From the NCBI GenBank assembly GCA_947627955.1, contig CANQXZ010000004.1:1-53211 (forward strand): 53,211 bases of DNA, read 5' to 3'. Position 1 is the stretch's first letter. The number at the start of each line of letters is the position of its first letter. Below, one piece after another: positions 2,593-44,908 of the stretch. A model generated the notes under the pieces. The model was not told where the DNA came from and ran no database searches. It saw only the letters and a list, made by a program, of their open reading frames with translations. The translations under genes were made by a program, and so were the position numbers. Origin of the DNA: an uncultured Clostridia bacterium (GTDB taxonomy: Bacteria; Bacillota; Clostridia; Christensenellales; Borkfalkiaceae).

Positions 2593-3861
2593 TTACGCTC
2601 TGCCAGAGACGGCGGCGGCGAGCGCGCCCGTGAGGTTGAGCTCTTCCCCGCCGATTATCTTGTATGAGATGCCCTTACGGGTCAGAATAGCGTGCAGATA
2701 TCTTTCGAAGCGGTCCCTGTACCCGTACAATTTGTAAAAAGTCGTGCCCTCGGCAACGATCGCCACCGTTTTGCCTGCGGGGACTTCCGACTTGATCGCC
2801 GCCGCTCCGTTGACGACCGCGCCCATGCGCGCCGCCCTGTCGATAAGCGCCGTCATTATGTCCTTTGCAGCCGTCTCGTCGTCTTCGCAGCCGAACGCGC
2901 CGCCGAATACGCCCTTTGCGCCTTTGAGATAGTCCGAAACTTCCCCGAGCCCGAATTCGGGCAGGGCGACGGGGCGCTGCATGACCCCCTCCCCTGCCGC
3001 CGCTTCGAGACTTATCCTTATAAGTCTTGCGAGATACTTCCCGCCCGAAGCCTTTTCGAACTTCTGGCTGCCGGGCTCTGCGGTTTCGCCCGCGACGGCG
3101 GCGTCGAAGTCGCCCGTGGGGAATTTATCGTAATTCCCGCACTCGGTATTCACGATCATCTTGCCTGTGAGGTCCTTGCAACCGCGCAGCTTTCTTATCT
3201 TAGAGGCGTCTTCGATATACGCGACGTTCGTGCCCGTGCCGTAGATATAGCCTATGTAAGCGGGGAATATTCCGCACGTCTGCGCCATTCCGCCCAGCAA
3301 AGTGGCTACCGCGTCGTTTAAAATGACTATCTTCCGCTCGGCGGGGTGATATTTTTGTACGGCGCGCAGAGTGCATTCCCCCACGCGCGTGCCCTTTATG
3401 CCGCGGGCTTTGAGCTCTTTGGGCGTATCGGCGACCATGCCGTCGAGCCCCGCGTCCATGTCCACGGGATAGGAAAAGCAGAATCCTATGTCGCCGCCGT
3501 GGGGCAAAAGTCTTGTTATGTTGCGCGCGATCCCGTCGTAGAACTCTTCCGCGCCCAGCTCCCTGTCCGAGGCGGGCATGGCTCTGTTTTCAAGATGCTC
3601 CATCACCATTCCGCCCGCCGCGTCGAAGTGGCAGAGCGCGCTTCTGAAATTCGTGCCGCCCGCGTCTATTACGATCGTCTTTTCGGACCGCTGCCCGAAC
3701 ACGGGGCTGTATGTCCCGAGATATGTGGGAAACATTTTCAGGCTTCCGCCGCCGCCCTCCAGACCGAGCCGCATTTCCTCTAAAAACCGCGTCGTGTAGG
3801 CGAATATGTTGATATCCTCGGGCGATTGCCTGTGTTTTTTTAAAAATTCCTGCACGGTCAT
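2593..3861 (-). CDS. Hexokinase (eukaryotic-type hexokinase fold)
   Basis: Predicted 422-residue ATP:hexose 6-phosphotransferase. The phosphate-1 motif VIDAGGTN is at residues 64-71. A sugar-binding FSYPVD segment, the catalytic-Asp region ILNDAVATLLGG, a phosphate-2 motif GTGTN and a VNTECGNY block follow. These resemble the hexokinase_1/_2 family rather than the ROK glucokinases. The frame stays open to 4008, but I chose the ATG at 3861: it overlaps the stop of the isomerase gene as ATGA, and a GGGGGA site precedes it by about 10 bases. Beside mannose-6-phosphate isomerase, the likely substrate is mannose, giving mannose-6-phosphate in the cytosol. Glucose or other hexoses are possible. Confidence 0.88.
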   Translation of the reverse strand: MTVQEFLKKHRQSPEDINIFAYTTRFLEEMRLGLEGGGGSLKMFPTYLGTYSPVFGQRSEKTIVIDAGGTNFRSALCHFDAAGGMVMEHLENRAMPASDRELGAEEFYDGIARNITRLLPHGGDIGFCFSYPVDMDAGLDGMVADTPKELKARGIKGTRVGECTLRAVQKYHPAERKIVILNDAVATLLGGMAQTCGIFPAYIGYIYGTGTNVAYIEDASKIRKLRGCKDLTGKMIVNTECGNYDKFPTGDFDAAVAGETAEPGSQKFEKASGGKYLARLIRISLEAAAGEGVMQRPVALPEFGLGEVSDYLKGAKGVFGGAFGCEDDETAAKDIMTALIDRAARMGAVVNGAAAIKSEVPAGKTVAIVAEGTTFYKLYGYRDRFERYLHAILTRKGISYKIIGGEELNLTGALAAAVSGRA

Positions 3862-4766
3862 AAGTTTATATCCCCCACGCAAGTCATGATGTATTTGCCT
3901 TTTCCCGTCAGCGCGGCGCGCTCTCCCGCAGACACGAACGCCGTGTCGCCCTTTGAGAGCTCCAGCCCGCCGAGCCGCACGCCGCCGTCCGTCACGGTGA
4001 GCGCGCAAAAGCTGTTATCGCTGCCCACGCTCATGTCCCCCGAAAGCGCATACGCCGTAAAGTACTTGCAGGAGAACAGCTTGCGCCCGCCGCGGACCGC
4101 CGCGGGCTCCGTCCTTGAAAAGTTCAGCACCATCCGCGCCTTGTCGAGGTGCAGTTCGCGCGGGTTGCCGTCCTTGTCCACCCTGCCGTAGTCGTATACC
4201 CTGTATGTGACCGAACTGTTCTGCTGTACTTCATATAGCGTCACCCCCGCGCCTATGGCGTGCACCGTGCCCGAGGGGATGAAATACGCTTCTCCCGGGG
4301 TCACCTCTATTTTATTGAGCAAATCGCACACGTTCCCGTCTTTTACGGCTTTGTCAAAGTCCACGGCGGTCAGATCGCGGTTGAATCCGAGATATATGCA
4401 TGCGCCCTTGTCCGCCGAAAGTATGTACCACATCTCGGTCTTTCCGGGACAGCCCTCGTACGCCATAGCGTATTCGTCGGACGGGTGGACCTGCACGGAC
4501 AGCGGCAGCGCGGCGTCTATTATCTTGTTGAGCACGGGAAAAACCCGGAACCCGTCGCAGTTTTTTCCCCAATCGGCGCGCGTTGCCACGTCCGCAAGCG
4601 GTTTGCCCGCGTGAACGCCGCCCTCTATAATGGACAGCCCCTGCGGGTGGAAGGAAAGTTCCCACGTTTCCGAAAGCATGTCGCCGCCCTGTTTATTCCA
4701 TTCGTCCTTCAATTTATGCCCGCCCCAGATGTAGCTTTTAACGGACGGTATCAACTTAACTATCAT
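3858..4766 (-). CDS. manA: Mannose-6-phosphate isomerase, class I
   Basis: A zinc enzyme that interconverts mannose-6-phosphate and fructose-6-phosphate. The 302-residue length suits the short bacterial type I form. The zinc ligands can be read: Q92 and H94 in VQVHP, E111 in GKTEMWY, and H169 in PSGTVHAIG. The YEVQQNSSVTYRVYDYGR block is also typical, and a small C-terminal cupin half follows. The gene overlaps the hexokinase start by 4 bases, so the two are translationally coupled and probably act in sequence on imported or GH38-released mannose. Confidence 0.95.
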   Translation of the reverse strand: MIVKLIPSVKSYIWGGHKLKDEWNKQGGDMLSETWELSFHPQGLSIIEGGVHAGKPLADVATRADWGKNCDGFRVFPVLNKIIDAALPLSVQVHPSDEYAMAYEGCPGKTEMWYILSADKGACIYLGFNRDLTAVDFDKAVKDGNVCDLLNKIEVTPGEAYFIPSGTVHAIGAGVTLYEVQQNSSVTYRVYDYGRVDKDGNPRELHLDKARMVLNFSRTEPAAVRGGRKLFSCKYFTAYALSGDMSVGSDNSFCALTVTDGGVRLGGLELSKGDTAFVSAGERAALTGKGKYIMTCVGDINL

Positions 4767-30010: not shown

Positions 30011-31279
30011 ATGAAACTCAAAAACAAAATCGCCGCGTTGGCAGTGTGTGCAACTCTTGCGGCAGGCAGTGTGTTCGGCTTTGCCGCCTGCGACGCGGAT
30101 AACGGCGGCTCCGCCGCAGGGGACGCGGATATCCGCGAAGTATACTCCCTCTATGTGGCGAGCGCGGAAGAGGCGGGCAATGACCCCTTGACATATGAAG
30201 AGTGGCTTGAATCGATAAAAGGCGCAAAGGGCGACGACGGCATAACTCCCCATATCGGCGACGACGGCTATTGGTGGGTAGGCTCCAAAAAGACCGACGT
30301 TAAGGCGCAGGGTGAAAACGGCGAAAACGCCATAACACCCCATATAGGCGCGAACGGCAATTGGTTCATAGGCGAAGAGGACACTCACGTTCCCGCCACG
30401 GGTCCGAAAGGCACGGACGGCAACAACGGCGCAAACGGCACCTCCTTCCGCCACGGTCACGGCAAACCCGCGGCGGATCTGGGAATAGCGGGCGATCTCT
30501 ATCTCGACATAGACGAATGGGACGTATACGAAAAGACGGAAAGCGGCTGGAGTGAAGAACCCATCGGAAATATAAAGGGCGAAAAAGGCGACAAGGGCGA
30601 CCCCGGCACGGGCGGCACAGCCGAGCCTGCGGAAATCACGGTAGACATTACCGCGGGCGGACAGCAGGAAATTTCCGTAGCCGGTTTATCTGCCGGAACA
30701 CATTTGATAATAATGGATTTAGGCGACGTAACATTGGCAAGCAGCTCTTCAATAAGAGTGCAGGTTGGCGAAGGATATCCTTCTGAAATAGTTAAAAGCG
30801 AAGCCCGCAGCACGGAATCAGGCAAAAATATATATTATGGATATCTCGTTGTACCTGAAGCCGCAACCACAGCGACCGTTTCGGCAATAGGCGAAGACGT
30901 TAAAGCAACCGTAACATTTGAGGATTATGCAGCTCCTACTCTCGAAGTCGGCAAAGCCATAGAAGTTCCCATAAATGCGAAAGACACGGCGGAAGGGAAC
31001 ATAATTAAATTCAAATTGGCAAGCGGTCTTTCCGGAAAATACTCATTTCAGATAACCTATTCAAGTCAAAGCTCTAAATCCACCGGTACATATTTTGTTA
31101 AGAAAACTGGAAAATCAAGATTAGCGAGTCTTACAAGAGCATGGGATGTTACTATAAGTGAAGCCGATTACGAAACCGACGGCGATACGTTTGTATATCT
31201 GATTTTAATGGGTATGAATGTGTCTTCCGAAAATCTTCAATTTACTATTCCCGTTACACTGACCATAACTGCGGCGTAA
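30011..31279 (+). CDS. Collagen-like lipoprotein, copy 1
   Basis: 422 residues with lipobox GFAAC (Cys27). An N-terminal motif DIREVYSLYVASAEE, then LTYEEWLESIKG, leads into broken Gly-x-y collagen-like repeats. The last run is KGEKGDKGDPG. A C-terminal beta-rich head domain of about 210 residues follows. The homologue at 39528-40796 has the same length and the same block order. The two extra ITPHIG(D/A)(D/N)G units here are a frequent companion of such repeats in gut Firmicutes. It is probably a trimeric surface stalk whose partner is unknown. Its next gene (31708) is also a homologue of the gene following copy 2, so the pair is duplicated. Confidence 0.85.
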   Translation: MKLKNKIAALAVCATLAAGSVFGFAACDADNGGSAAGDADIREVYSLYVASAEEAGNDPLTYEEWLESIKGAKGDDGITPHIGDDGYWWVGSKKTDVKAQGENGENAITPHIGANGNWFIGEEDTHVPATGPKGTDGNNGANGTSFRHGHGKPAADLGIAGDLYLDIDEWDVYEKTESGWSEEPIGNIKGEKGDKGDPGTGGTAEPAEITVDITAGGQQEISVAGLSAGTHLIIMDLGDVTLASSSSIRVQVGEGYPSEIVKSEARSTESGKNIYYGYLVVPEAATTATVSAIGEDVKATVTFEDYAAPTLEVGKAIEVPINAKDTAEGNIIKFKLASGLSGKYSFQITYSSQSSKSTGTYFVKKTGKSRLASLTRAWDVTISEADYETDGDTFVYLILMGMNVSSENLQFTIPVTLTITAA

Positions 31280-31314
31280 TATATCATACACCGTTTACAA
31301 TTTTCTGTCTTTAC

Positions 31315-31350
31315 ATGGCTCCCCTTATTTTATTATAAGTGGAGCCATAA
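31315..31350 (+). terminator. Weak terminator after collagen-like copy 1
   Basis: ATGGCTCC (31315-31322) pairs with GGAGCCAT (31341-31348) over an AT-rich loop, then TAAATTA. Confidence 0.45.
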
Positions 31351-31364
31351 ATTACAGGCAGCTT

Positions 31365-33819: not shown

Positions 33820-36800
33820 CTATTGCTCAGTGTCGCCGTCGGGCGGATCCGTTTCGATTTTTGTATTCTTCAACTTTTGTATCAATTCTTTATACTCTTC
33901 GGGATACAACCTGGAAAAATAGTAGCGCCCTATATCCGACAGAGAACGCGCATAGACCGAATCGGGATCTTCGGCATAGAGCTCCCTCCATGCATCAAAG
34001 ATCATTTGCCCGCGATCTTCCGAATATTTTTCGGGCACGAGCCACTTCCCCAGCCTGCCCAAGAACTCCCTCCGCTCGCCGTCGTCGGTTCCGTCCGCCG
34101 AGTCGAGCATTTTTATATACACCGCGGGAGAGAAATAATTCAAAAAGTTATAACCGTCCAATATTTTCAGATATTTGAGAATATCTTCATGGCCCAGATC
34201 TTGCCCGAAAAGCAGATCTATGGCGCTGATATGCGGGATCTTTTCGTATTCGCAAATAGAGCAGATAAACGGCTCGTCGCTTACAACGGCGTAATTTTCA
34301 TTGCTCTTGGCGAGCCCCAGCAAGTACCGCTCCGAACTGAGGTGTTCCTGTATGAAAAAATCGTTCATCCCGGAACTTTTGCTCTTATACGGCGACGACT
34401 CTATATCCCTTATCTTGCCGATACGGTCCATCAGATTTCCGTAAAAATTCACCGCGCCTTTCCTATAATTTTTGTCATAGTCCATTCTGTATATCTGTCC
34501 GTTTTCCGATTGCAGCGTGCCCACAAACGCATCGTTTTGCAGTTCGTTTAAAATGGAAGAAAACATAGACAAGATATCCGACTTGGATTGCTTTGCCATG
34601 ACGAGCCGCCCGTCGTCGATATCTTTCAGCGCGCCGATCGCAGCGAGGGTGCATATGGCGTCGGTGGACAAAATGAAGTACTCGCCGCAGCCGCGCCCGC
34701 CGTTATTTAGTTTCATTTTATTGCCCGATATTATGTGTCCCCACGCGGTATAATATTTTGTCCCGAGCTGCCTTGCCAATATGCTTACGGGCAAAATGCC
34801 CCTCGACTTATTGAAAATTTCAAACAACTCGTCCTGCCCCTTTTTTCTGTCCTCGACGATCTTCGTTATTTCCCTTATGGCGTCGGCGGGGCTCTCGCCC
34901 GCGATCAGGGTCACGCTCCCGCTTTTCAAAAAGGAGGCTAACGCCTCGTCATATAGTTTTTTGGAGAAAGAGGAGATATTCTTTACCTTGTAGGAGCGCC
35001 CCAGATACTCTATGTCGTCGCCGACCTCGGACAATTTCCACGATAAGTATTTATAGTCGCCGTCGCTCACGGGCTCACATCCGACGATTTCGCCGCACGC
35101 GGCGCCGTCTGTCAGATCGGCTCTCAAAAGCGCGACCCGCTTCGTCTCTTCCCCGTTTTCCAGCTCGAAAATTTTTCCGAACCCGAACTTGTCCTTGTCG
35201 GCATGCCCGAGATATACAGAAGCCAATCTGTGAAGCGCTTCCGTCTTCTGCGGGTCGATCAGAAGCGAACGTATAAGGTACTTCTTTTCCGCTTCGGTAT
35301 CGTTATTTGCCGCGTAAAATGCCGCGGTAATATATTGCAGGTCAGCGTCGCATACAGCCGCGGCTTTTTCGACATATCCGTCTATCGCGCGTTCGTTGCA
35401 GTAGTATTTGATCTGCAACAGTTCGAGCAGGATGCTGTTTCCGGGATCTATGGCATACTCCTTTTCATAGTACTTCTTCGCCTCGGCGATATGCCCCAAT
35501 CTGTACAAGATAACAGCGACGGTCCGATAGAACCCCTTTTCGCAAAAGCCGTCTTTTTCAAGCTGCTTCAAAAATCCGATACAGCGTTCATAATTTTCCT
35601 CGCTGTCATTGCCGCACAGCGCGACGACGGTAATGTAGCGGAGCCCGTTGTCCTGCAAGTCAAAAAACAGGCTTCCCAGCTCCTCCCACTCCCCATATTT
35701 TTGCAGCGCGGATATGTATGATCCGATGGCGTCGTAATCCATTTCGTCCTTGCGGTCCTTTAAAAACTGCAGATATCCGCGTCCCTCGCCGCCGTCCGCG
35801 TAATTCGCCGCCATGGCGTTCCACATTACGTCGTTTGAGTATATATCCCTATATCCGAGGAGTATACGGTATTTCTCCCCGTCGGGCAAGTCAGAGCCTT
35901 TGAGCCGCAGGAACAGAAACAGCGAATTTTTTCCGAGAAGATACCTGTGTTCATCCAGATAACCGGCTCTCGTTTTGCCGTCCGCGCTCCGCAAGACCAT
36001 AATGAGCTCCTGCTCGTCGGCAAGCTCCCCGTCGCCGCCGAGATATTCTTCGGGCGCGCGCAGCTTGTGATAAATGCAGTAGTATTTGTAAACCGTACTG
36101 AACCTTTTGTCCTCTTTAATGTACGCGGGGCACTGCCCGTAGAGCGCGTCGAACTCCTCCCTGTCGCGTACACAATAATTAAGGCAGCTCAGGCGGATAA
36201 ATGCCTGCCATCTTTTGTCCAGACGGCTCAGTTTGTCGGCGCACCCCTTCAAAAAGATATAGTCCGCGCTTATATGCATGTCTTTTACGTAATATCTTGC
36301 ATTTACGACTTCGCAAAATACCCTCCACGCGCTTGCCCTTACTTTGAACAAAAACTCCCCCTCGTACAGCGCGAACTCTTCCCCGTCCGATTTTTTGGGC
36401 AGGAAAGGGATCTCGCTGTCTACGATAAACGAACTCAACAGTTTCGCCGCCGTTTTGCCGTCGTTTATCATGTAGTCTTTATACTCATCCTTTTTATCCT
36501 CGGGACACAGAAGTGTGGAGCGCACGCTGTCGCCCAGCACCGCCTCCGCCCACTTTTTCAGTTCCGCGTCCGCGCAACGGGGGAGGAGCTCCTTCAAGCC
36601 CTCCTTTATGTTGAGCGACACCAGAACTTTGGCGACATGCCCGCACTGCTCGTCCGTCGCCGCTTTAAGATACTGCCCCATGCAAAGCGGTATTGCGCCG
36701 ATATTGCAATAGCAGTTATAGTAAATTTCGTACCTGAGGAGCAATTCGTCCTGCGAGTTGTATTTTTTGTGATTTTTTATGAGCAATATCAGAGTATCGT

Positions 36801-37227
36801 ACTGCCCCTCTTTTATCAGCGCGTCGAAGATGCTCTCCAACGTCTTTTTGTCGGACAGCTCTTCCTGCCTGTATTCGTATTCCTTCAACCTGTCGGCGGC
36901 TTCCCTTTCGGCTTCATCCTTCCAGCGGCGTAAAAGCTCCGCGGGATACGCCTTTTCGTCCGCGTCGATAATTCTGGCATGGTTGGAACACATCCACACG
37001 CAGTTGTCGGCGGACTTCCTCTCCTCCGCCGTCATATTCGGATCGTATCTCGGACCATTGGGCGAAGCCGCATAGATATGGCAACCTATCCCCACGTTGG
37101 AGGTCTTTGAACTGTCGCCGTACTTGGGACCTATCGTCGCCATTCCGCAGCCCTTGAAACAACACCTGTACGCCACTCTCTTTGCGACCGAATCTATCGT
37201 CTTTCGGGTAAAATCATCCCTTGCCAT
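33820..37227 (-). CDS. Multidomain HNH-TPR-GreAB-C-PIN-like protein, probable conflict/defence effector
   Basis: 1,135 residues, no signal peptide. N-terminal HNH-type nuclease-like domain: C22/C23/C27, GCHIYAASPNGPRYD with H50, and MCSNH with C80 and H83. The middle (about 110-700) is helical TPR-like repeats, for example YRLGHIAEAKKYYEKEYAIDP. Near residues 725-760 EVGDDIEYLGRSYKVKNI resembles the GreA/GreB C-terminal domain. About 835-1010 looks like a PIN RNase fold: acidic residues in ILSTDAICTLAA and VVSDEPF, and then AIDLLF. The TPR-GreAB-C-PIN order is known from predicted bacterial conflict proteins; an HNH domain in front is notable. It is a lone gene with its own promoter, between two copies of a surface cassette. 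Domain calls after the HNH are by eye. Confidence 0.75.
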   Translation of the reverse strand: MARDDFTRKTIDSVAKRVAYRCCFKGCGMATIGPKYGDSSKTSNVGIGCHIYAASPNGPRYDPNMTAEERKSADNCVWMCSNHARIIDADEKAYPAELLRRWKDEAEREAADRLKEYEYRQEELSDKKTLESIFDALIKEGQYDTLILLIKNHKKYNSQDELLLRYEIYYNCYCNIGAIPLCMGQYLKAATDEQCGHVAKVLVSLNIKEGLKELLPRCADAELKKWAEAVLGDSVRSTLLCPEDKKDEYKDYMINDGKTAAKLLSSFIVDSEIPFLPKKSDGEEFALYEGEFLFKVRASAWRVFCEVVNARYYVKDMHISADYIFLKGCADKLSRLDKRWQAFIRLSCLNYCVRDREEFDALYGQCPAYIKEDKRFSTVYKYYCIYHKLRAPEEYLGGDGELADEQELIMVLRSADGKTRAGYLDEHRYLLGKNSLFLFLRLKGSDLPDGEKYRILLGYRDIYSNDVMWNAMAANYADGGEGRGYLQFLKDRKDEMDYDAIGSYISALQKYGEWEELGSLFFDLQDNGLRYITVVALCGNDSEENYERCIGFLKQLEKDGFCEKGFYRTVAVILYRLGHIAEAKKYYEKEYAIDPGNSILLELLQIKYYCNERAIDGYVEKAAAVCDADLQYITAAFYAANNDTEAEKKYLIRSLLIDPQKTEALHRLASVYLGHADKDKFGFGKIFELENGEETKRVALLRADLTDGAACGEIVGCEPVSDGDYKYLSWKLSEVGDDIEYLGRSYKVKNISSFSKKLYDEALASFLKSGSVTLIAGESPADAIREITKIVEDRKKGQDELFEIFNKSRGILPVSILARQLGTKYYTAWGHIISGNKMKLNNGGRGCGEYFILSTDAICTLAAIGALKDIDDGRLVMAKQSKSDILSMFSSILNELQNDAFVGTLQSENGQIYRMDYDKNYRKGAVNFYGNLMDRIGKIRDIESSPYKSKSSGMNDFFIQEHLSSERYLLGLAKSNENYAVVSDEPFICSICEYEKIPHISAIDLLFGQDLGHEDILKYLKILDGYNFLNYFSPAVYIKMLDSADGTDDGERREFLGRLGKWLVPEKYSEDRGQMIFDAWRELYAEDPDSVYARSLSDIGRYYFSRLYPEEYKELIQKLKNTKIETDPPDGDTEQ

Positions 37228-37512: not shown

Positions 37513-39501
37513 TCAGGCAGACTGCTTGAATGTCACGCGGATGCCGAAAGTGCTGTCAAAGTCGCGGTAGTTTTCGATAAGTCTATCGGTCACGGCTATC
37601 GTCCGCCTGTATGTCGTCACGGGTCCGTTTAAGGAAACATATACCTTTGTCCACCCGCCCGAAACGGTGCGGCTTTCATAGGTATCTATGATATACCCCG
37701 CGTCCGCCGTTATCGTGACGGTCACGGTGACGCCCGCGGTGTAGCCGTCCTGCCCTTCTGCAACGTCCGGGGTTATGGTGTAGCTGCCGCCGACGCCGCC
37801 GATTATCTCCACCGAGACCTTTACATAGGGCTCCTTATAATCCGAGGCGTAGAGCTGAACTCCCTCGTCGGAAGAGTTGCGGCGCACCCATACGCGCATG
37901 CCGAGCCCCGCGTCTGTCACAAAGTCCGCGGTCGCCTCGTTTGCGCCGTACTGCATGGTAAGGCTGTTCTTCATTTGCCCGAACTTATCCGTGGGGCGGA
38001 ATACTACGTTCTCGAACCAGCTCGAGCCCGAGTTCGTGCTGTACTTTGCCGTGCCGTCCTCGTTGACGACGAGGATATTCGCCCCGTCCTTTGAGGTGTA
38101 CGTGCCCGCATATTGGGGAATGAGCACGGGGTCCAAGCCCACGACCCTGTTGTAGTAGACGACATTCTCGTTGCCGTTTGAAGAGGTGTACGCATAGGCG
38201 AGGTTCGCGCCCTGTTTATACAGCGTGAACTCGTTGCCGCCTACCCCCATCATGTGGAGCCTGCCGAGCTCCTCGTCATAGCTCATGACTATCGCCCTGC
38301 TTGTGCCCCTTAAAAAGTTGTCCTCGGTGATGGTTATCGCCGGCTCATTTCCGTCCAGAACGTCCCACTCGCCGACAAAGGTCGCGGGGAAGGAATATGT
38401 GTAGTAGTCCACGCCGTCTTTGAGGTAGTACGCCGTCGTAGTGGTGTGGTCCGCAAGGTCCTCGAAGGAGATGGTGAAGAGGTACTTCCCCTCGCGGAGC
38501 AGGCGGTAGGAAGCCGTGTACTCCGTGCTGTCGCCCTCGTCGTCCGTATAGGTGAAGGTGAGAACCCCTTCGCTCTCGGCTACGACGCACTCCTTGCCCT
38601 CGAAGGTCACGGAATCCTGCCCCACCGTTAAGTCCTCGCCCACGGCGCCGCTCTCTATATAGGGCTTCCATAGCCCCATAAGCTCGGCGGGGAACACGCT
38701 GCCCATCTCCACGAAGGAGATCTCCACCGCTGTGTGCTTATCCGCCGTGAAAGTGCAGCTTAAACCCGTGAGGGGCGTCTCCGCGCCGTTTATCAGCACT
38801 TTGCCCACGCGGTAGCCCTCCTCGGGGGAGACCGTCAGGGTGACGAGCGTGCCGTTGAGATAGCTCGGTCCCTCGGGGGAGAGGGAATAGCTTCCGCCCT
38901 CGCCGCAGGTCACCGAGACCCTCTTATAGCGGGTGTCCTCGGCGTGGATATCTATCACGGTAGCCTTTTCCACCGTGAACGCGTAGGTGTTGTCGCTTTT
39001 CAGCTCCACCGCCGCGCCGTTCACCAAAACGCCGTTTAAAAGGTAGTTCTCCCCGACGGTCACCGCCAGAGTGACCTCCGTCCCCTCGTAGTACTCCGAG
39101 CGGTTGGGGGAGAGCTTGTAGCTTGCCCCCTCGTCGCAGTTGACCGTGACTTTGTGCGCGGCGAGGGCTGCAAAGGAGATATCCACCTGCGTATCCCCCG
39201 CAAGGGTGAACGCGCACTTGTTTTCCGCAACCGCCGCAGCCGCGCCGTTTACCTTTACTTCGCCCGCGCGGTAGCCGCTGTAAGGCGTTAAGGTGAGGGT
39301 CACCTCGTCCCCCACGCGGTAGGGCGAAGAGGGAGAGAGGGAATAAGTTCCGCCCTCGCCGCAGGTCACCTCCACCTCGCAGAGCTTTGCAGAGCTTGCG
39401 GGCGGGTCCGTTTGGGGAGTTTCGCCCCCTCCGCTGCAAGCCGTCAGCGCAAGGGAAAGGCTTACGGCGAGCGCAAGTATTATCGCAAATATCTTTTTCA
39501 T
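37513..39501 (-). CDS. Gly-Glu-Gly-Gly repeat lipoprotein, cassette copy 2
   Basis: 662 residues, lipobox ALTAC (Cys22). Three N-terminal repeats of about 75 residues contain (V/N)(T/C)CGEGG(T/S)YSLSP or a close variant, then GYR.GEVKVNG or similar and a Val/Ile-Asp-Ile-(S/H) end. A further copy near the C-terminus reads VSVEIIGGVGGSYTITP. Between them is a region with lipocalin-like strands (GLWKPYIESGAVGEDL, GTYTSKDGANILVVNEDG) matching the second half of the 648-residue homologue. It lies 26 bases downstream of collagen-like copy 2, so both should be transcribed from the invertible promoter at 40921-40949. Confidence 0.82.
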   Translation of the reverse strand: MKKIFAIILALAVSLSLALTACSGGGETPQTDPPASSAKLCEVEVTCGEGGTYSLSPSSPYRVGDEVTLTLTPYSGYRAGEVKVNGAAAAVAENKCAFTLAGDTQVDISFAALAAHKVTVNCDEGASYKLSPNRSEYYEGTEVTLAVTVGENYLLNGVLVNGAAVELKSDNTYAFTVEKATVIDIHAEDTRYKRVSVTCGEGGSYSLSPEGPSYLNGTLVTLTVSPEEGYRVGKVLINGAETPLTGLSCTFTADKHTAVEISFVEMGSVFPAELMGLWKPYIESGAVGEDLTVGQDSVTFEGKECVVAESEGVLTFTYTDDEGDSTEYTASYRLLREGKYLFTISFEDLADHTTTTAYYLKDGVDYYTYSFPATFVGEWDVLDGNEPAITITEDNFLRGTSRAIVMSYDEELGRLHMMGVGGNEFTLYKQGANLAYAYTSSNGNENVVYYNRVVGLDPVLIPQYAGTYTSKDGANILVVNEDGTAKYSTNSGSSWFENVVFRPTDKFGQMKNSLTMQYGANEATADFVTDAGLGMRVWVRRNSSDEGVQLYASDYKEPYVKVSVEIIGGVGGSYTITPDVAEGQDGYTAGVTVTVTITADAGYIIDTYESRTVSGGWTKVYVSLNGPVTTYRRTIAVTDRLIENYRDFDSTFGIRVTFKQSA

Positions 39502-39527: not shown

Positions 39528-40796
39528 TTATTCTTCCGCAGGGGTGAGAGATATGGTTAAAGCAGAAATATTTTTACCTCTATCACTACCCGTTACCATT
39601 GCTGCCGATCGAATATACATTTCCGTATCTTCGCCTGTAAATTGAATGGTGGTATCCGGGAAACTTATTACGCCGTCAGCATATTTTGCAACAACCGACA
39701 CTTGCTGAGTACCAACACAGACATACAATATAACATTTATTAGCTCCGGCAAAGTATCAAATTTTAATGTATACTTCGCATTTCCAATGGAAGGGTCAAG
39801 ATGAAATTTTATCACATCTTCGTCCGGCACTAAATTTTTGTGAGCATTTACGGGAATGACTATCTTCGAACCGTCGCCTTTGAGGGTGGGAGCTTCCCAC
39901 TTTTCAAAGGAGATAGTTGCATTTATATCGTCTAATTCTGCCGCGAATGTCACATTGATATCCTCTGCCGTAACGACAAGATAACCGAGGAGCACATTAT
40001 GTCCAGGCGTTCCCAAGGATTCTTCCGGGGTAAAATTACAATGTATTTCCGAAACATAAGCATAAAATCTACCGCCGTCATATTGAGCTGCTAAGCCGGT
40101 GGGCGGAGTAGGCGGGGTATAAGTTGCAGAACCGACGTCGGCTTTCATGACATACACGCCGGGGTCGGCTATGACTTCCGCGGGGAGAGATACTTCCTGC
40201 GAGCTTCCCGCCGTTACGGACACGGTGACGGTAGGCGCGCCCTCGGGCAGAGGGGAGCCGCTTCCGCCCGAACCTGCGCCGGGGTCGCCCTTATCTCCCT
40301 TGTCGCCTTTATCACCTTTTTCGCCTTTATCGCCTTTGACGCCCTGTTCGCCCTGAGGTCCCTTTAAGCTGCCGATGGGTTCGGAGCTCCAGCCCTCCAG
40401 AGTCTTTTCATACAGATCGCCCGTCAGAACGTCCAAATAGAGGTCGCCGACCTTGCCTGCCGAGGCGTTCGGCGCGCCGTTGCCGTGCAAAAAGCTGCTA
40501 CCGTCCGCGCCGCTGTCGCCCTTATCTCCCTTGTCGCCGTCGTCGCCCTTGTCGCCCTGCGGTCCCTGAGGTCCCTGCGCGCCCTGCGGGCCCTTTACCG
40601 ATTGGAGCCACTCCTCGTAGGTGAGGGGCTCTTCGCCGTTTTCCTCGGCATAAGCCACGTAGAGGGAATACACTTCGCGGATATCGGAGCTGCCCGCGGG
40701 ATCTTTGCCGTTATCGCATGCGGCAAAGCCGAACGCGGAACCTAAGGCGAGGGCTGCGCCCACGCAGAATACTGCCAACTTTTTCAACGCTTTCAT
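39528..40796 (-). CDS. Collagen-like lipoprotein, copy 2, behind the invertible promoter
   Basis: 422 residues, lipobox GFAAC (Cys27). It shares the DIREVYSLYVAYAEE and LTYEEWLQSVKG blocks with copy 1 and has cleaner Gly-x-y runs: a GPQGAQGPQGPQG run and two KGDKGDKGD-type runs on either side of a short HGNGAPNASAGKVGDLYLD insert. A beta-rich C-terminal head of about 210 residues follows. AAGGAG lies 9 bases ahead of the ATG. Transcription should come from the promoter inside the inverted-repeat segment upstream, so the stalk is probably made by only part of the population. Confidence 0.85.
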   Translation of the reverse strand: MKALKKLAVFCVGAALALGSAFGFAACDNGKDPAGSSDIREVYSLYVAYAEENGEEPLTYEEWLQSVKGPQGAQGPQGPQGDKGDDGDKGDKGDSGADGSSFLHGNGAPNASAGKVGDLYLDVLTGDLYEKTLEGWSSEPIGSLKGPQGEQGVKGDKGEKGDKGDKGDKGDPGAGSGGSGSPLPEGAPTVTVSVTAGSSQEVSLPAEVIADPGVYVMKADVGSATYTPPTPPTGLAAQYDGGRFYAYVSEIHCNFTPEESLGTPGHNVLLGYLVVTAEDINVTFAAELDDINATISFEKWEAPTLKGDGSKIVIPVNAHKNLVPDEDVIKFHLDPSIGNAKYTLKFDTLPELINVILYVCVGTQQVSVVAKYADGVISFPDTTIQFTGEDTEMYIRSAAMVTGSDRGKNISALTISLTPAEE

Positions 40797-40870: not shown

Positions 40871-40900
40871 AAACTTCATGGAAAAATATTATCTATGAAG
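40871..40900 (+). repeat. Left inverted repeat of the invertible segment
   Basis: 30 bases, 29 of which match the reverse complement of 41030-41059. It has the form of a tyrosine-recombinase core site: arm AAACTTCATGGA, 9-base spacer AAAATATTA, then an imperfect opposite arm. Confidence 0.85.
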
Positions 40901-40920
40901 AATTTCAGCGACTTACAATT

Positions 40921-40949
40921 ATAATAGGCCGTTTTTATGAATATGTCAA
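40921..40949 (-). promoter_or_regulatory. Promoter inside the invertible segment
   Basis: Minus-strand TTGACA (40949-40944), 17-base spacer, TATTAT (40926-40921). An overlapping TATAAT at 40923-40918 is an alternative. The leader would cross the left repeat before reaching the ribosome site of the collagen-like gene. Confidence 0.8.
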
Positions 40950-41029
40950 ACAATATTTTTATAATTATAACATATTTTTTAACTTTTTTTTGTGAATTTT
41001 CCAAAATGCGGCAAAAAATCCGAAAAAAA

Positions 41030-41059
41030 CTTCATGGATAATATTTTTCCATGAAGTTT
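41030..41059 (-). repeat. Right inverted repeat of the invertible segment
   Basis: Opposite orientation to 40871-40900. In this copy both 12-base arms are perfect (AAACTTCATGGA and TCCATGAAGTTT, 41027-41059) around the 9-base spacer TAATATTTT, the complement of the left spacer. Confidence 0.85.
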
Positions 41060-41112
41060 TGGCAGGGAGGATAAGGCTCCCCGCCGACTTATTTTTTTTG
41101 CCGTTTTTTGGT

Positions 41113-41154
41113 GGGCGGCGGGGCGGGATCCTTTGCCCCGCCGCCCCTTTTTTT
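41113..41154 (+). terminator. Plus-oriented terminator between switch and recombinase gene
   Basis: GGGCGGCGGGGC (41113-41124) pairs with GCCCCGCCGCCC (41135-41146), then CTTTTTTT. No plus-strand gene precedes it, so its natural job would be to stop transcripts from the switch when inverted. Confidence 0.75.
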
Positions 41155-41246: not shown

Positions 41247-42155
41247 CTAATACATGGTCTTGCCGAGCTTGTTCATCATGGCGCGCTTGTGCTCGAGCAT
41301 GCTGTGCACGTAGCGGCGCAAGGTTATGTTGGGGTTGCTGTGCCCCAAAAGTTCGGAAAGGGTCTTTATATCCATGCCGCACTCCAATGCGCGGGTCGCG
41401 AAGGTGTGCCTCAGCGCATGGAACCCGCGGTGAGGAAGCCCCAACTTTTTAAGCAGCAGGGTGAACGTCATCTGATAGGAGCGCACGGAGACGAGCCTGC
41501 CGTCCCTGCCGCAGACGAGGTATTCGCTCTTGCTAACGCTCTCAGCCGCCCTCAGGCGGGGCAGAAGCTGTTTGGGCAGGGGAATAACGCGCAGGGAGGA
41601 GCTCGTTTTGGGCAGCTCTATTATCTTTTTGTACTCCCCGCCCGACCAGCAGTCGCGGCAGGTCTTGCACACGGTGAGCGTGCCCGCGACGAAGTCGAAA
41701 TCGCTCCACCGCAGCGCCATCAGCTCGCCGATGCGCAGCCCCGTATACAGGCAGAGCATTATGCCGAAATACTTTTGGTTGCGGCTGCCGAAGATATACT
41801 TTTCCAGCCGCCTCTGCTCGATATAGGAGAAGCTCTCCACGAGTTTTTCCGTGGCGCGCGGAAAGGGCAGCTCGCCCTCGAAGTCGTTCGTGACAAAACC
41901 GCGCGTTCTTGCTTCCTTAAAGGAGCGCTTTATTATGGAAAGGGCGGTTTTTACCGTGCTTGTGGAATAGCGCTCGGCGAGGCGGGCTATAAACAGCTGC
42001 ACCACCTCTACGGTTATCTCGCCGAGTTCCATCTGTCCTATCGCGGGGACTATCTGCCCGGACAACAAGGTGCCGTAGCGATAATAAGTTGAGTCCTTAA
42101 CGGAGGGGCGGACGTTTGTGTGCATCCAGATCTTTGACCATTCAGAGTACTTCAT
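41247..42155 (-). CDS. Tyrosine recombinase, probable switch invertase
   Basis: 302 residues. An N-terminal SAM-like core-binding domain (about 1-95) is followed by the catalytic domain with all expected residues: R141 in TGLRIGEL, K183 in LPKTSSS, H246 and R249 in HALRHTFA, H272 in LGHS, and nucleophile Y282 in RRYVHS. The length and layout fit integrase/Xer-type enzymes. There is no excisionase, no phage gene and no tRNA target nearby. A candidate substrate, the inverted core sites at 40871 and 41030, lies just downstream of its stop codon. AAGGAG precedes the ATG. I infer that it inverts the segment; a role elsewhere in the genome cannot be excluded. Confidence 0.9.
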   Translation of the reverse strand: MKYSEWSKIWMHTNVRPSVKDSTYYRYGTLLSGQIVPAIGQMELGEITVEVVQLFIARLAERYSTSTVKTALSIIKRSFKEARTRGFVTNDFEGELPFPRATEKLVESFSYIEQRRLEKYIFGSRNQKYFGIMLCLYTGLRIGELMALRWSDFDFVAGTLTVCKTCRDCWSGGEYKKIIELPKTSSSLRVIPLPKQLLPRLRAAESVSKSEYLVCGRDGRLVSVRSYQMTFTLLLKKLGLPHRGFHALRHTFATRALECGMDIKTLSELLGHSNPNITLRRYVHSMLEHKRAMMNKLGKTMY

Positions 42156-42547: not shown

Positions 42548-44908
42548 TCACCCCTGCCAATTGCGCGCCCAATAATAATCTCCCGTTATTCTGCGGGCGT
42601 TGGTGGAAGGGTTGTCTGTGGAAACAGCCTCCGCGCCCGTCATATCTTCATACGTGGAGGTTTGCCACCCGTCTTGGGCGACGAAGGTCACGCTTGTCAA
42701 AGGGTTATCTTTGAAAGCCTTGCTGCCTATATATTTTACGCTCGCAGGTATAGTGAGCTCTTTGAGTTTATTCTGCCGGAACGCATAACGTCCTATATAC
42801 ACGAGGGTAGAGGGCAGCTCTACATCTTCCAGCGCACCAAACGCGCCGTCGCTTATGCCCTTGAGACCTTCGGGCAGCGAGACGTGTTTCACGCCATAGA
42901 GAGAGTTATCGGCTACCGATACGGTACCCGGTCTTACGGTATAGTTTTCGAGCGCACCGTCAGTTTCGTTGCGCTTTATGAGATAATTGCCGAGATACAG
43001 CCCGTCCGCCTTCCAATTGGACTGGTCCTTATAGAACGCGGTGCCGTTGAACGCGCCTTCGCCTATGTTATACACGCCGTTGCCCATCTTTATAGTGGCG
43101 AGCGCGCTGCAATTTTCGAAGACGTAGCTGTCGATAAAGCGCACGTTTTCGGGGATATCTATGGATTTCAGCTTTGAGCACTCGCCGAACGCCCAACTGC
43201 GCATAGATTGCAGTCCCCTGCCGAGCGACACGTTTTCAAGCGACGAACACCCGTAAAAGAGCCTTGCGGGAATGGTCTGCACCTTGTCGCCTATTCTGAC
43301 CGTGTGGACGCGGCAATCGTCGAAAAACGAAGTCCGATAGTCCGTATTCACGATTTTTATTGCGTTGTAGTTCACCGTCTCTATTCCCGAGCAGCCGAAA
43401 AAGGTCCCGGGGGTCATGGAGGTAACTCCCTCGGGTATGGTGACGGACGTTATCCCCGTGCAGTTGGTGAACACATAATTTTCGAGCGCGGTAACGCCAT
43501 CGGGTATCGTCACGCTGCCGCTTATCGCGGGGGGAACGCCGATTATGCGGGTCAGGGCTTTGTTGCAGAGCATGTTGCTGTATGCCGCAAAGTTGGCGTT
43601 CGCCTCTTCAACGGTGACCTCGCCTATTTGGCTGCCCGAAAAGAACGCGGGGTTAATGCTCTCCACGTCCGCGCCGATATGCACGCTTTTAAGGCGCTGG
43701 CATCCGCTGAACCACCCGGAATTGGTCGTGACGTTCATATTCCAATCCACCTTGGCGAGCATGCCGCAGTCCGAAAACGCCCCGACTGTCACGTCGCGGT
43801 AATTTTCAACGGTGAATTCCGTCGCGGCGGTGGGGACCTTTGCAAGTTCCGAGTCTATGCGGTCGATAAGTTCGCCCTTTTCGCCCACGGTATAGTTGAC
43901 GTTGCGCGGATCCACGGAAAATCTCTCCGCCCGCGTGCCGCTGAACGCCGAAGTTATTTTCTTTACGCTTCTTCCGAGCGGGATCTCCTCGCCGAGATAG
44001 CCGTAGTACATCCTGTCCAAAGTTTCCAAAGAGCAGTCTCCCCACTCTATCTTCGCCGTGCAGCCCCCGAACGCGCCCTCGCCCACGAAGTCAAGACCGT
44101 CGGCAAGGCGTATACCCGTGAGGGAAGTACAGTCCTCGAACGCGCCCGGCGCAACGCTGACTACGCGCATACCCCAGAAGGAGTTGGGAATGACTACGTC
44201 CTTATCCGTTGCCGCGCCCATACCCATGACCCGCAAACGGGCGCTCTTGTACCAATAGCCGCCTCCGCCCTCGGGCTCTATATCGAGCCCCGCCGTGGCG
44301 TGGTAGCCGAATGCCTCGGCAACGACGAGGGCTTCTTCCGGATCCTGCCCCTCGCCGTAGAAGGACATTGCCAAGCCGCCGAGCCCCTCCTTTTCGAAGG
44401 TGAACTTGAACACGATGCGGTAGGACTTTTCCTCTTCCGCTTCGACGGGCACGGTATACGAGGTGGTGATAGTCTCGCCGTAGTACTCCGTCCCGTAGCT
44501 TATCTTGCTCGTTGCGGCTTCCTCGACGGTGAAATCCATCACGGGCGCGAGCTCACCCGAAGCGCTGTCGTAGTACATGGTGCTGACGTAAAAGGCGTTG
44601 TAAAAGGATTCCGCCCCGAGCTGCAAAAAGGAGGATATCGTGAAGTCCACGACGATAAAGTAGTCCTTGCCCTGCTCGAAGTCCATCATGGCGTACAGCT
44701 TGCTGTCGTCGATATTGCCCGCGGGGCACTCCTCCTCGCTGGTGTAGGCTATCTGATAGCTTATGTCGTCGTTGTAGATCTTGACTTCGGGCGGCAGATA
44801 CTCCGTCTGCGGAGTTCCGCCCTTGGGCGAGGGACCGCAGGCGGCAAGCGCCGCAGTGCAGCACGCCGCCGAGAGAACGGATAGCGCGAGAACCATAAAC
44901 TTTTTCAT
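42548..44908 (-). CDS. BspA-like leucine-rich repeat lipoprotein
   Basis: 786 residues, lipobox LAAC (Cys24). The first about 215 residues are a beta-rich region with no assigned fold. The rest is LRR_5-type (BspA/Treponema) repeats of about 23 residues, with phrases such as FEDCTSLTGIRLADGLDFVG, VFTNCTGITSVTIPEGVTSM and FKDNPLTSVTF. Such proteins mediate adhesion in several host-associated bacteria; the target here is unknown. The upstream region has a candidate -10 (TATAAT at 45008-45003) next to a direct repeat of AGTGCTAAAA. Two terminators follow the gene. Confidence 0.88.
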   Translation of the reverse strand: MKKFMVLALSVLSAACCTAALAACGPSPKGGTPQTEYLPPEVKIYNDDISYQIAYTSEEECPAGNIDDSKLYAMMDFEQGKDYFIVVDFTISSFLQLGAESFYNAFYVSTMYYDSASGELAPVMDFTVEEAATSKISYGTEYYGETITTSYTVPVEAEEEKSYRIVFKFTFEKEGLGGLAMSFYGEGQDPEEALVVAEAFGYHATAGLDIEPEGGGGYWYKSARLRVMGMGAATDKDVVIPNSFWGMRVVSVAPGAFEDCTSLTGIRLADGLDFVGEGAFGGCTAKIEWGDCSLETLDRMYYGYLGEEIPLGRSVKKITSAFSGTRAERFSVDPRNVNYTVGEKGELIDRIDSELAKVPTAATEFTVENYRDVTVGAFSDCGMLAKVDWNMNVTTNSGWFSGCQRLKSVHIGADVESINPAFFSGSQIGEVTVEEANANFAAYSNMLCNKALTRIIGVPPAISGSVTIPDGVTALENYVFTNCTGITSVTIPEGVTSMTPGTFFGCSGIETVNYNAIKIVNTDYRTSFFDDCRVHTVRIGDKVQTIPARLFYGCSSLENVSLGRGLQSMRSWAFGECSKLKSIDIPENVRFIDSYVFENCSALATIKMGNGVYNIGEGAFNGTAFYKDQSNWKADGLYLGNYLIKRNETDGALENYTVRPGTVSVADNSLYGVKHVSLPEGLKGISDGAFGALEDVELPSTLVYIGRYAFRQNKLKELTIPASVKYIGSKAFKDNPLTSVTFVAQDGWQTSTYEDMTGAEAVSTDNPSTNARRITGDYYWARNWQG

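What the first reader, a model, noticed from the sequence alone, without database searches (positions are those of the whole stretch)
40871..41059. Invertible promoter controlling a surface lipoprotein cassette
Two 30-bp sequences in opposite orientation match at 29 of 30 bases. Each has the two-arm, 9-bp-spacer layout of a tyrosine recombinase core site, with identical asymmetric spacers. The interior is non-coding and carries TTGACA-17-TATTAT pointing at the collagen-like/repeat lipoprotein operon (40796 to 37513). A complete tyrosine recombinase gene starts within 200 bp of the right repeat. Together this is the anatomy of a phase-variable ON/OFF switch; the window shows the ON orientation.
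Basis: partly seen in the sequence, partly recalled or inferred. Interest (0 to 1): 0.9.

Follow-up and report, generated by a model that had tools for sequence, protein, structure and literature searches.

The report
Invertible promoter switch for surface lipoproteins
A gut Clostridia bacterium carries a small DNA segment that a neighbouring recombinase most likely flips to turn a surface lipoprotein operon on or off; the same genome holds three more copies of the segment in the opposite state, which makes this a four-locus surface-variation system of a known general kind.

Summary
Two 30-bp inverted sites (29/30) flank a segment with TTGACA-17-TATTAT aimed at a two-gene surface lipoprotein operon. 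An intact tyrosine recombinase gene ENDS (not starts) 188 bp from the right site.

(1) The genome holds exactly four such cassettes (8 sites), each before a paralogous lipoprotein gene. Relative to that gene, the window's interior is inverted compared with the other three: it matches them only when flipped (82-88 of 106-108 bases; direct = shuffle level), while gene-side flanks match directly. The assembly thus shows one ON and three OFF. (2) The recombinase belongs to a Clostridia family in which about half the genes have such a cassette just 3' of them (36/74 versus 1/77 on the 5' side). Across 49 cassettes, paired sites differ at 28% of arm bases but under 1% of 7-bp spacer bases. (3) For one relative, Pumilibacter muris and a near-identical MAG have identical flanks and the 124-bp interior exactly inverted.

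Inversion of the window's own cassette within one strain is inferred, not seen: no reads were available. Master invertases with local and distant invertible promoters are known (B. fragilis Mpi, Tsr19), so this is a new member of a known kind.

The parts
40871..40900 (+). Left recombination site (gene-proximal), outer arm to inner arm; core ACTTCATGGAA-AAATATT-ATCTATGAAGA
   Evidence: 29/30 inverted match to the right site; one of 8 such sites in the genome
41030..41059 (-). Right recombination site (recombinase-proximal); core on - strand ACTTCATGGAA-AAATATT-ATCCATGAAGT
40901..41029 (.). Invertible interior, 129 bp, non-coding
   Evidence: Matches the interiors at C7, C55 and C32 only when inverted relative to the lipoprotein gene
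40921..40949 (-). Promoter TTGACA-17-TATTAT, pointing at the lipoprotein operon (ON)
   Evidence: hexamers and spacing conserved in all four cassettes
39528..40796 (-). Collagen-like surface lipoprotein, 422 aa (lipobox FAAC), first gene of the switched operon
   Evidence: PF01391; N-terminal 80 columns 77-83% identical to the C7, C55 and C32 paralogues, the rest 26-35%
37513..39501 (-). Second operon gene, 662 aa lipoprotein with InlB-type repeats
   Evidence: PF18998; paralogues second at C7 and C32
41247..42155 (-). Tyrosine recombinase, 302 aa, the likely invertase
   Evidence: PF00589 4e-28; Arg141, Lys164, His246, Arg249, His272, Tyr282 invariant
41059..41096 (+). Hairpin followed by T run just outside the right site; would stop transcription from the OFF orientation
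   Evidence: -16.4 kcal/mol, z -2.96
41113..41154 (+). Strong intrinsic-terminator-like hairpin between cassette and recombinase gene, reading away from the cassette
   Evidence: 15-pair stem then CTTTTTTT; -33.7 kcal/mol for the stretch folded

Best explanation
40871-41059 is an invertible promoter cassette. The tyrosine recombinase encoded at 41247-42155 binds the two inverted sites and exchanges strands in their identical spacers, which flips the 129-bp interior with its single strong promoter. In the window the promoter points at the collagen-like lipoprotein operon (ON). In the other orientation it fires into terminator hairpins next to the recombinase gene (OFF). The same recombinase most likely also flips three further cassettes elsewhere in the genome (C7, C55, C32). 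Each lies before a paralogous lipoprotein gene with a conserved anchor and stalk base but a divergent distal part, and each is OFF in this assembly. The result would be a phase-variable repertoire of surface lipoproteins. Shown: anatomy, four cassettes, opposite orientations between paralogous loci, and an exact inversion of a sister module between two near-identical genomes. Inferred: inversion of this cassette today, that this recombinase does it, that it acts on the distant cassettes, and the effect on expression.
For: Sites 29/30, above all shuffles. Exactly four site pairs in the genome, none for the reversed control pattern, spacer identical within each pair. Interior inverted relative to the gene between C4 and the other three (inverted 88/108, 88/108, 82/106; direct at shuffle level), while gene-side flanks match directly. 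Promoter conserved in all four. Recombinase family has a 3'-adjacent inverted-repeat cassette in 36/74 versus 1/77 on the 5' side (Fisher p 5e-13). In 49 cassettes partner sites differ at 303/1078 arm bases but 3/343 spacer bases, with 35 distinct spacers. Pumilibacter muris L132 versus MAG L131: flanks 200/200 and 150/150 identical, interior 124/124 identical only when inverted. Catalytic residues intact.
Against: No reads or second strain of this species, so switching of this very cassette is not seen. The cassette DNA is absent from the 36 congeners searched. About half of the related recombinases show no such repeat within 600 bp on the 3' side. The genome encodes two further members of the recombinase family and two other PF00589 proteins, so the actor is not proven. 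C7 and C55 have a weaker reverse promoter, so OFF may be leaky.
Confidence: 0.9

Rival explanations
1. The cassettes once inverted but are now fixed: the opposite orientation of the window's copy is an old difference between duplicated loci and no switching occurs today.
For: Only one genome of the species is held, so current switching is not observed.
Against: The recombinase is intact with all catalytic residues. The interiors have diverged by about 19% between C4 and C7, yet the spacer is identical within every pair, as expected if sites of a pair still recombine. A sister module is found exactly inverted between near-identical genomes.
Confidence: 0.06
2. The inverted repeats are static: regulator-binding palindromes or transcription-attenuating hairpins, not recombination sites.
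For: Each site is itself an imperfect palindrome and would form a hairpin in RNA; in some relatives (L108) it is followed by a T run.
Against: Interiors occur inverted between paralogous loci and between near-identical genomes; mismatches between partner sites avoid the spacer; the repeats sit beside recombinase genes on one side only.
Confidence: 0.02
3. The cassettes invert, but a recombinase other than the adjacent one (C51, C1, or a Xer-type enzyme) acts on them, wholly or in part.
For: The genome encodes five proteins matching PF00589; C. difficile RecV acts far from its gene (PMC2784873).
Against: The C51 and C1 family members each have their own adjacent cassette with different sites that occur nowhere else in the genome; the window recombinase lies beside one of the four cassettes.
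Confidence: 0.1
4. Inversion does not give a clean ON/OFF: both orientations transcribe the operon at different strengths, because a weaker promoter points the other way.
For: C7 and C55 contain TTGAAT-17-TATAAT in the direction of the gene in their present orientation (sequence).
Against: That second promoter is not kept at C4 (3/6 at -35) or C32, whereas TTGACA-17-TATTAT is kept in all four.
Confidence: 0.15

Closest known systems
Bacteroides fragilis Tsr19/BF2766 local and distant invertible promoters
   Same: One tyrosine recombinase gene beside a local invertible promoter that also inverts a promoter elsewhere in the genome; targets are surface structures (PMC4747536).
   Different: Different phylum; one distant target rather than three; targets there are polysaccharide and outer-membrane genes, here paralogous collagen-like lipoprotein operons.
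Bacteroides fragilis Mpi-controlled capsule promoters
   Same: One master invertase, many dispersed invertible promoters before alternative surface loci (PMC4747536).
   Different: Mpi is a serine recombinase with 13 target regions; here a tyrosine recombinase with four cassettes.
Clostridia inverton group 139 with invertase group 35 (2025 hCom2 survey)
   Same: Clostridia invertons next to tyrosine-type recombinase genes; orientation changes were observed in culture (PMC11892184).
   Different: Sequences of that group were not available here, so identity with this recombinase family could not be tested.
Clostridioides difficile cwpV switch and RecV
   Same: Clostridial site-specific recombinase, inverted repeats around 195 bp, surface protein phase variation (PMC2784873).
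   Different: The cwpV promoter lies outside the inverted segment and OFF works through a terminator; recV is not adjacent to cwpV. Here the promoter is inside and the recombinase gene adjacent.

Membership tests
Invertible promoter (inverton) | Inverted repeats flanking a short segment, beyond chance | tested here: met
   29/30; 25/26 versus at most 19/26 in shuffles
Invertible promoter (inverton) | Promoter inside the segment, directed at a flanking gene in one orientation | tested here: met
   TTGACA-17-TATTAT by consensus, conserved in four cassettes; activity not measured
Invertible promoter (inverton) | Both orientations occur | tested here: met
   Met between paralogous loci of the genome and between two near-identical genomes for a sister module
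Invertible promoter (inverton) | Both orientations of this same cassette within one strain or sample | not testable with these tools
   No reads and no second genome of the species
Tyrosine recombinase (invertase of this switch) | Catalytic Arg-Lys-His-Arg-His-Tyr set | tested here: met
   Invariant in the three paralogues; PF00589
Tyrosine recombinase (invertase of this switch) | Partner sites share an identical spacer between inverted arms | tested here: met
   0/7 differences in all four cassettes; 3/343 over 49 modules
Tyrosine recombinase (invertase of this switch) | The recombinase inverts the cassette | not testable with these tools
   Needs an experiment
Master invertase with dispersed targets (Tsr19/Mpi-like) | Several dispersed cassettes with the same sites | tested here: met
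   Four pairs on four contigs
Master invertase with dispersed targets (Tsr19/Mpi-like) | One recombinase acts on all targets | not testable with these tools
   Inferred from site similarity; the other two family members have different sites
C. difficile cwpV-type switch | Promoter outside the inverted segment | tested here: not met
   Best promoter lies inside

The most novel reading that the evidence does not exclude
The four cassettes form a coordinated surface-antigen repertoire run by one recombinase, in which one operon is ON while the others are OFF, built on a widespread and largely undescribed Clostridia family of self-contained recombinase-plus-invertible-promoter modules.
Probability: 0.2. 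Interest if true: 0.68.

Novelty: new member of a known kind. Interest (0 to 1): 0.52.

Why it matters
It extends multi-locus promoter inversion, best known in Bacteroides, to small-genome gut Clostridia, and gives a sequence rule (recombinase gene, inverted sites with an identical 7-bp spacer, promoter between them, surface gene) by which such switches can be found in uncultured genomes. The Pumilibacter muris module is in a named strain in which it could be tested.

Tried and rejected
Fixed operators or hairpins: rejected by the inverted interiors. Conservation of this cassette in congeners: none found. Extra copies of the C51 and C1 cassettes in the genome: none. Extra copies of the G006 cassette in G006: none. 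Inverted repeats at the other collagen-like lipoprotein genes (window near 30 kb, C15): none that resemble the switch. Viral origin: a scan of viral contigs with the recombinase profile gave one distant hit, 26% identity. A first site-centring script mis-set the coordinates of the window cassettes and its threshold; it was redone, where one of 49 modules (L134) is still mis-centred and supplies all three spacer mismatches.

Full report
Observation. The two inverted sequences at 40871-40900 and 41030-41059 match at 29 of 30 bases, with an ungapped extension to 35 nt at 91%. Twenty dinucleotide shuffles of the neighbouring 700 bp gave at most 19/26 for the best arm pair; the real value is 25/26. 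The interior carries TTGACA-17-TATTAT on the - strand at 40949-40921, the strongest promoter-like site in the region. It points to two lipoprotein genes, 40796-39528 and 39501-37513. The first has a collagen-like repeat (PF01391) and the second InlB-type repeats (PF18998). The recombinase gene (41247-42155, - strand) has its 3' end, not its start, towards the cassette.

The genome. The window is contig C4 of a 1.65-Mb, 74-contig genome assembly. A pattern search of the whole genome found eight sites, forming exactly four inverted pairs, and no match for the reversed control pattern. The other three pairs lie at C7:46430-46593, C55:5774-5937 and C32:13960-14123. Each lies before a gene that begins with the same lipoprotein signal and stalk base: 77-83% identical to the window's over the first 80 alignment columns, 26-35% afterwards. 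C7 and C32 also have the second operon gene; C55 ends before it could be seen. The spacer is identical within each pair, although three versions occur among the four pairs.

Orientation. When the loci are aligned with the lipoprotein gene on the same side, the gene-proximal flanks match directly (65/73, 62/73 and 54/65). The window's interior matches the other three only when inverted (88/108, 88/108 and 82/106); the direct alignment scores no better than shuffled sequence. C7, C55 and C32 agree with each other in direct orientation. The promoter hexamers and the 17-bp spacing are conserved in all four. The assembly therefore shows the window ON and the other three OFF. C7 and C55 also contain TTGAAT-17-TATAAT in the opposite direction (read), so OFF may be leaky. 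Beyond the distal site of the window lie two hairpins followed by T runs (-16.4 and -33.7 kcal/mol) that would stop OFF transcription before the recombinase gene. C7 and C32 have a strong hairpin at the same place; at C55 the stretch folded gave no significant structure.

The recombinase family. The window recombinase has all catalytic residues. Two paralogues in the genome (49-52% identical) each have their own adjacent inverted-repeat cassette with no further copies. In the genus, 22 of 61 genomes, the window's own included, have a relative at E below 1e-60. Among 80 relatives from named genomes, an inverted repeat of at least 21/26 lies within 600 bp on the 3' side in 36 of 74 and on the 5' side in 1 of 77 (Fisher p = 5e-13). 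The usual order is recombinase, site, about 90-170 bp with a promoter, site, then, in the modules examined, often a secreted protein or lipoprotein gene. Where a promoter scored at least 10.5, it pointed away from the recombinase in 7 loci and towards it in 22; some of these are near-duplicate genomes. For 49 modules with centred sites, the four of this genome included, the consensus is 11-bp arms around a 7-bp spacer. Partner sites differ at 303 of 1078 arm positions but only 3 of 343 spacer positions, with 35 different spacers; all three come from one mis-centred module. Choosing repeats by overall similarity does not dictate where mismatches fall, so this is good evidence for strand exchange in the spacer.

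Direct evidence of inversion in the family. Locus L131 (an uncultured MAG, CAMUKG010000004.1) and L132 (Pumilibacter muris CLA-AA-M08, NZ_CALPCN010000005.1; family Pumilibacteraceae) have identical recombinase 3' ends (200/200) and gene-side flanks (150/150). Their 124-bp interiors are identical only after inversion. A lipoprotein-like gene follows. Further pairs in opposite orientation are L153/L169 and L166/L201; others share orientation.

Known systems. B. fragilis Tsr19/BF2766, a tyrosine recombinase that flips a local and a distant promoter (PMC4747536), is the closest functional analogue. Mpi is the serine-recombinase counterpart with more targets. A 2025 survey links a Clostridia inverton group (139) to a tyrosine recombinase group (35) and saw orientation shifts in culture (PMC11892184); it may be the same family, which could not be tested here. 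The C. difficile cwpV switch differs because its promoter lies outside the segment (PMC2784873). The finding is therefore a new member of a known kind.

Limits. No reads, no second strain of this species and no expression data were available. The assignment of the three distant cassettes to this recombinase is inferred from site similarity.

Noticed in passing
L023 (G000:C51) 2570-2795: The cassette next to the C51 recombinase has a third copy of its site (2771-2795) outside the segment, reminiscent of the extra repeats reported for B. fragilis Tsr19.
   Followed up: partly
window 30011-31354 (+): Another collagen-like lipoprotein (43-57% identical in two stretches) without inverted repeats upstream, so the family also has members outside the switch.
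   Followed up: partly
window 42548-44908 (-): A BspA-type leucine-rich-repeat lipoprotein lies just upstream of the recombinase gene; a similar truncated lipoprotein gene lies at the end of C55 (L017:2-967).
   Followed up: no
L108 (G074:C14) 3693-3882: Both recombination sites read as a hairpin followed by a T run, so the site itself may attenuate transcription.
   Followed up: no
window 33820-37227 (-): A 1135-aa protein with weak TPR matches, downstream of the switched operon with a 285-bp gap; function unclear.
   Followed up: no
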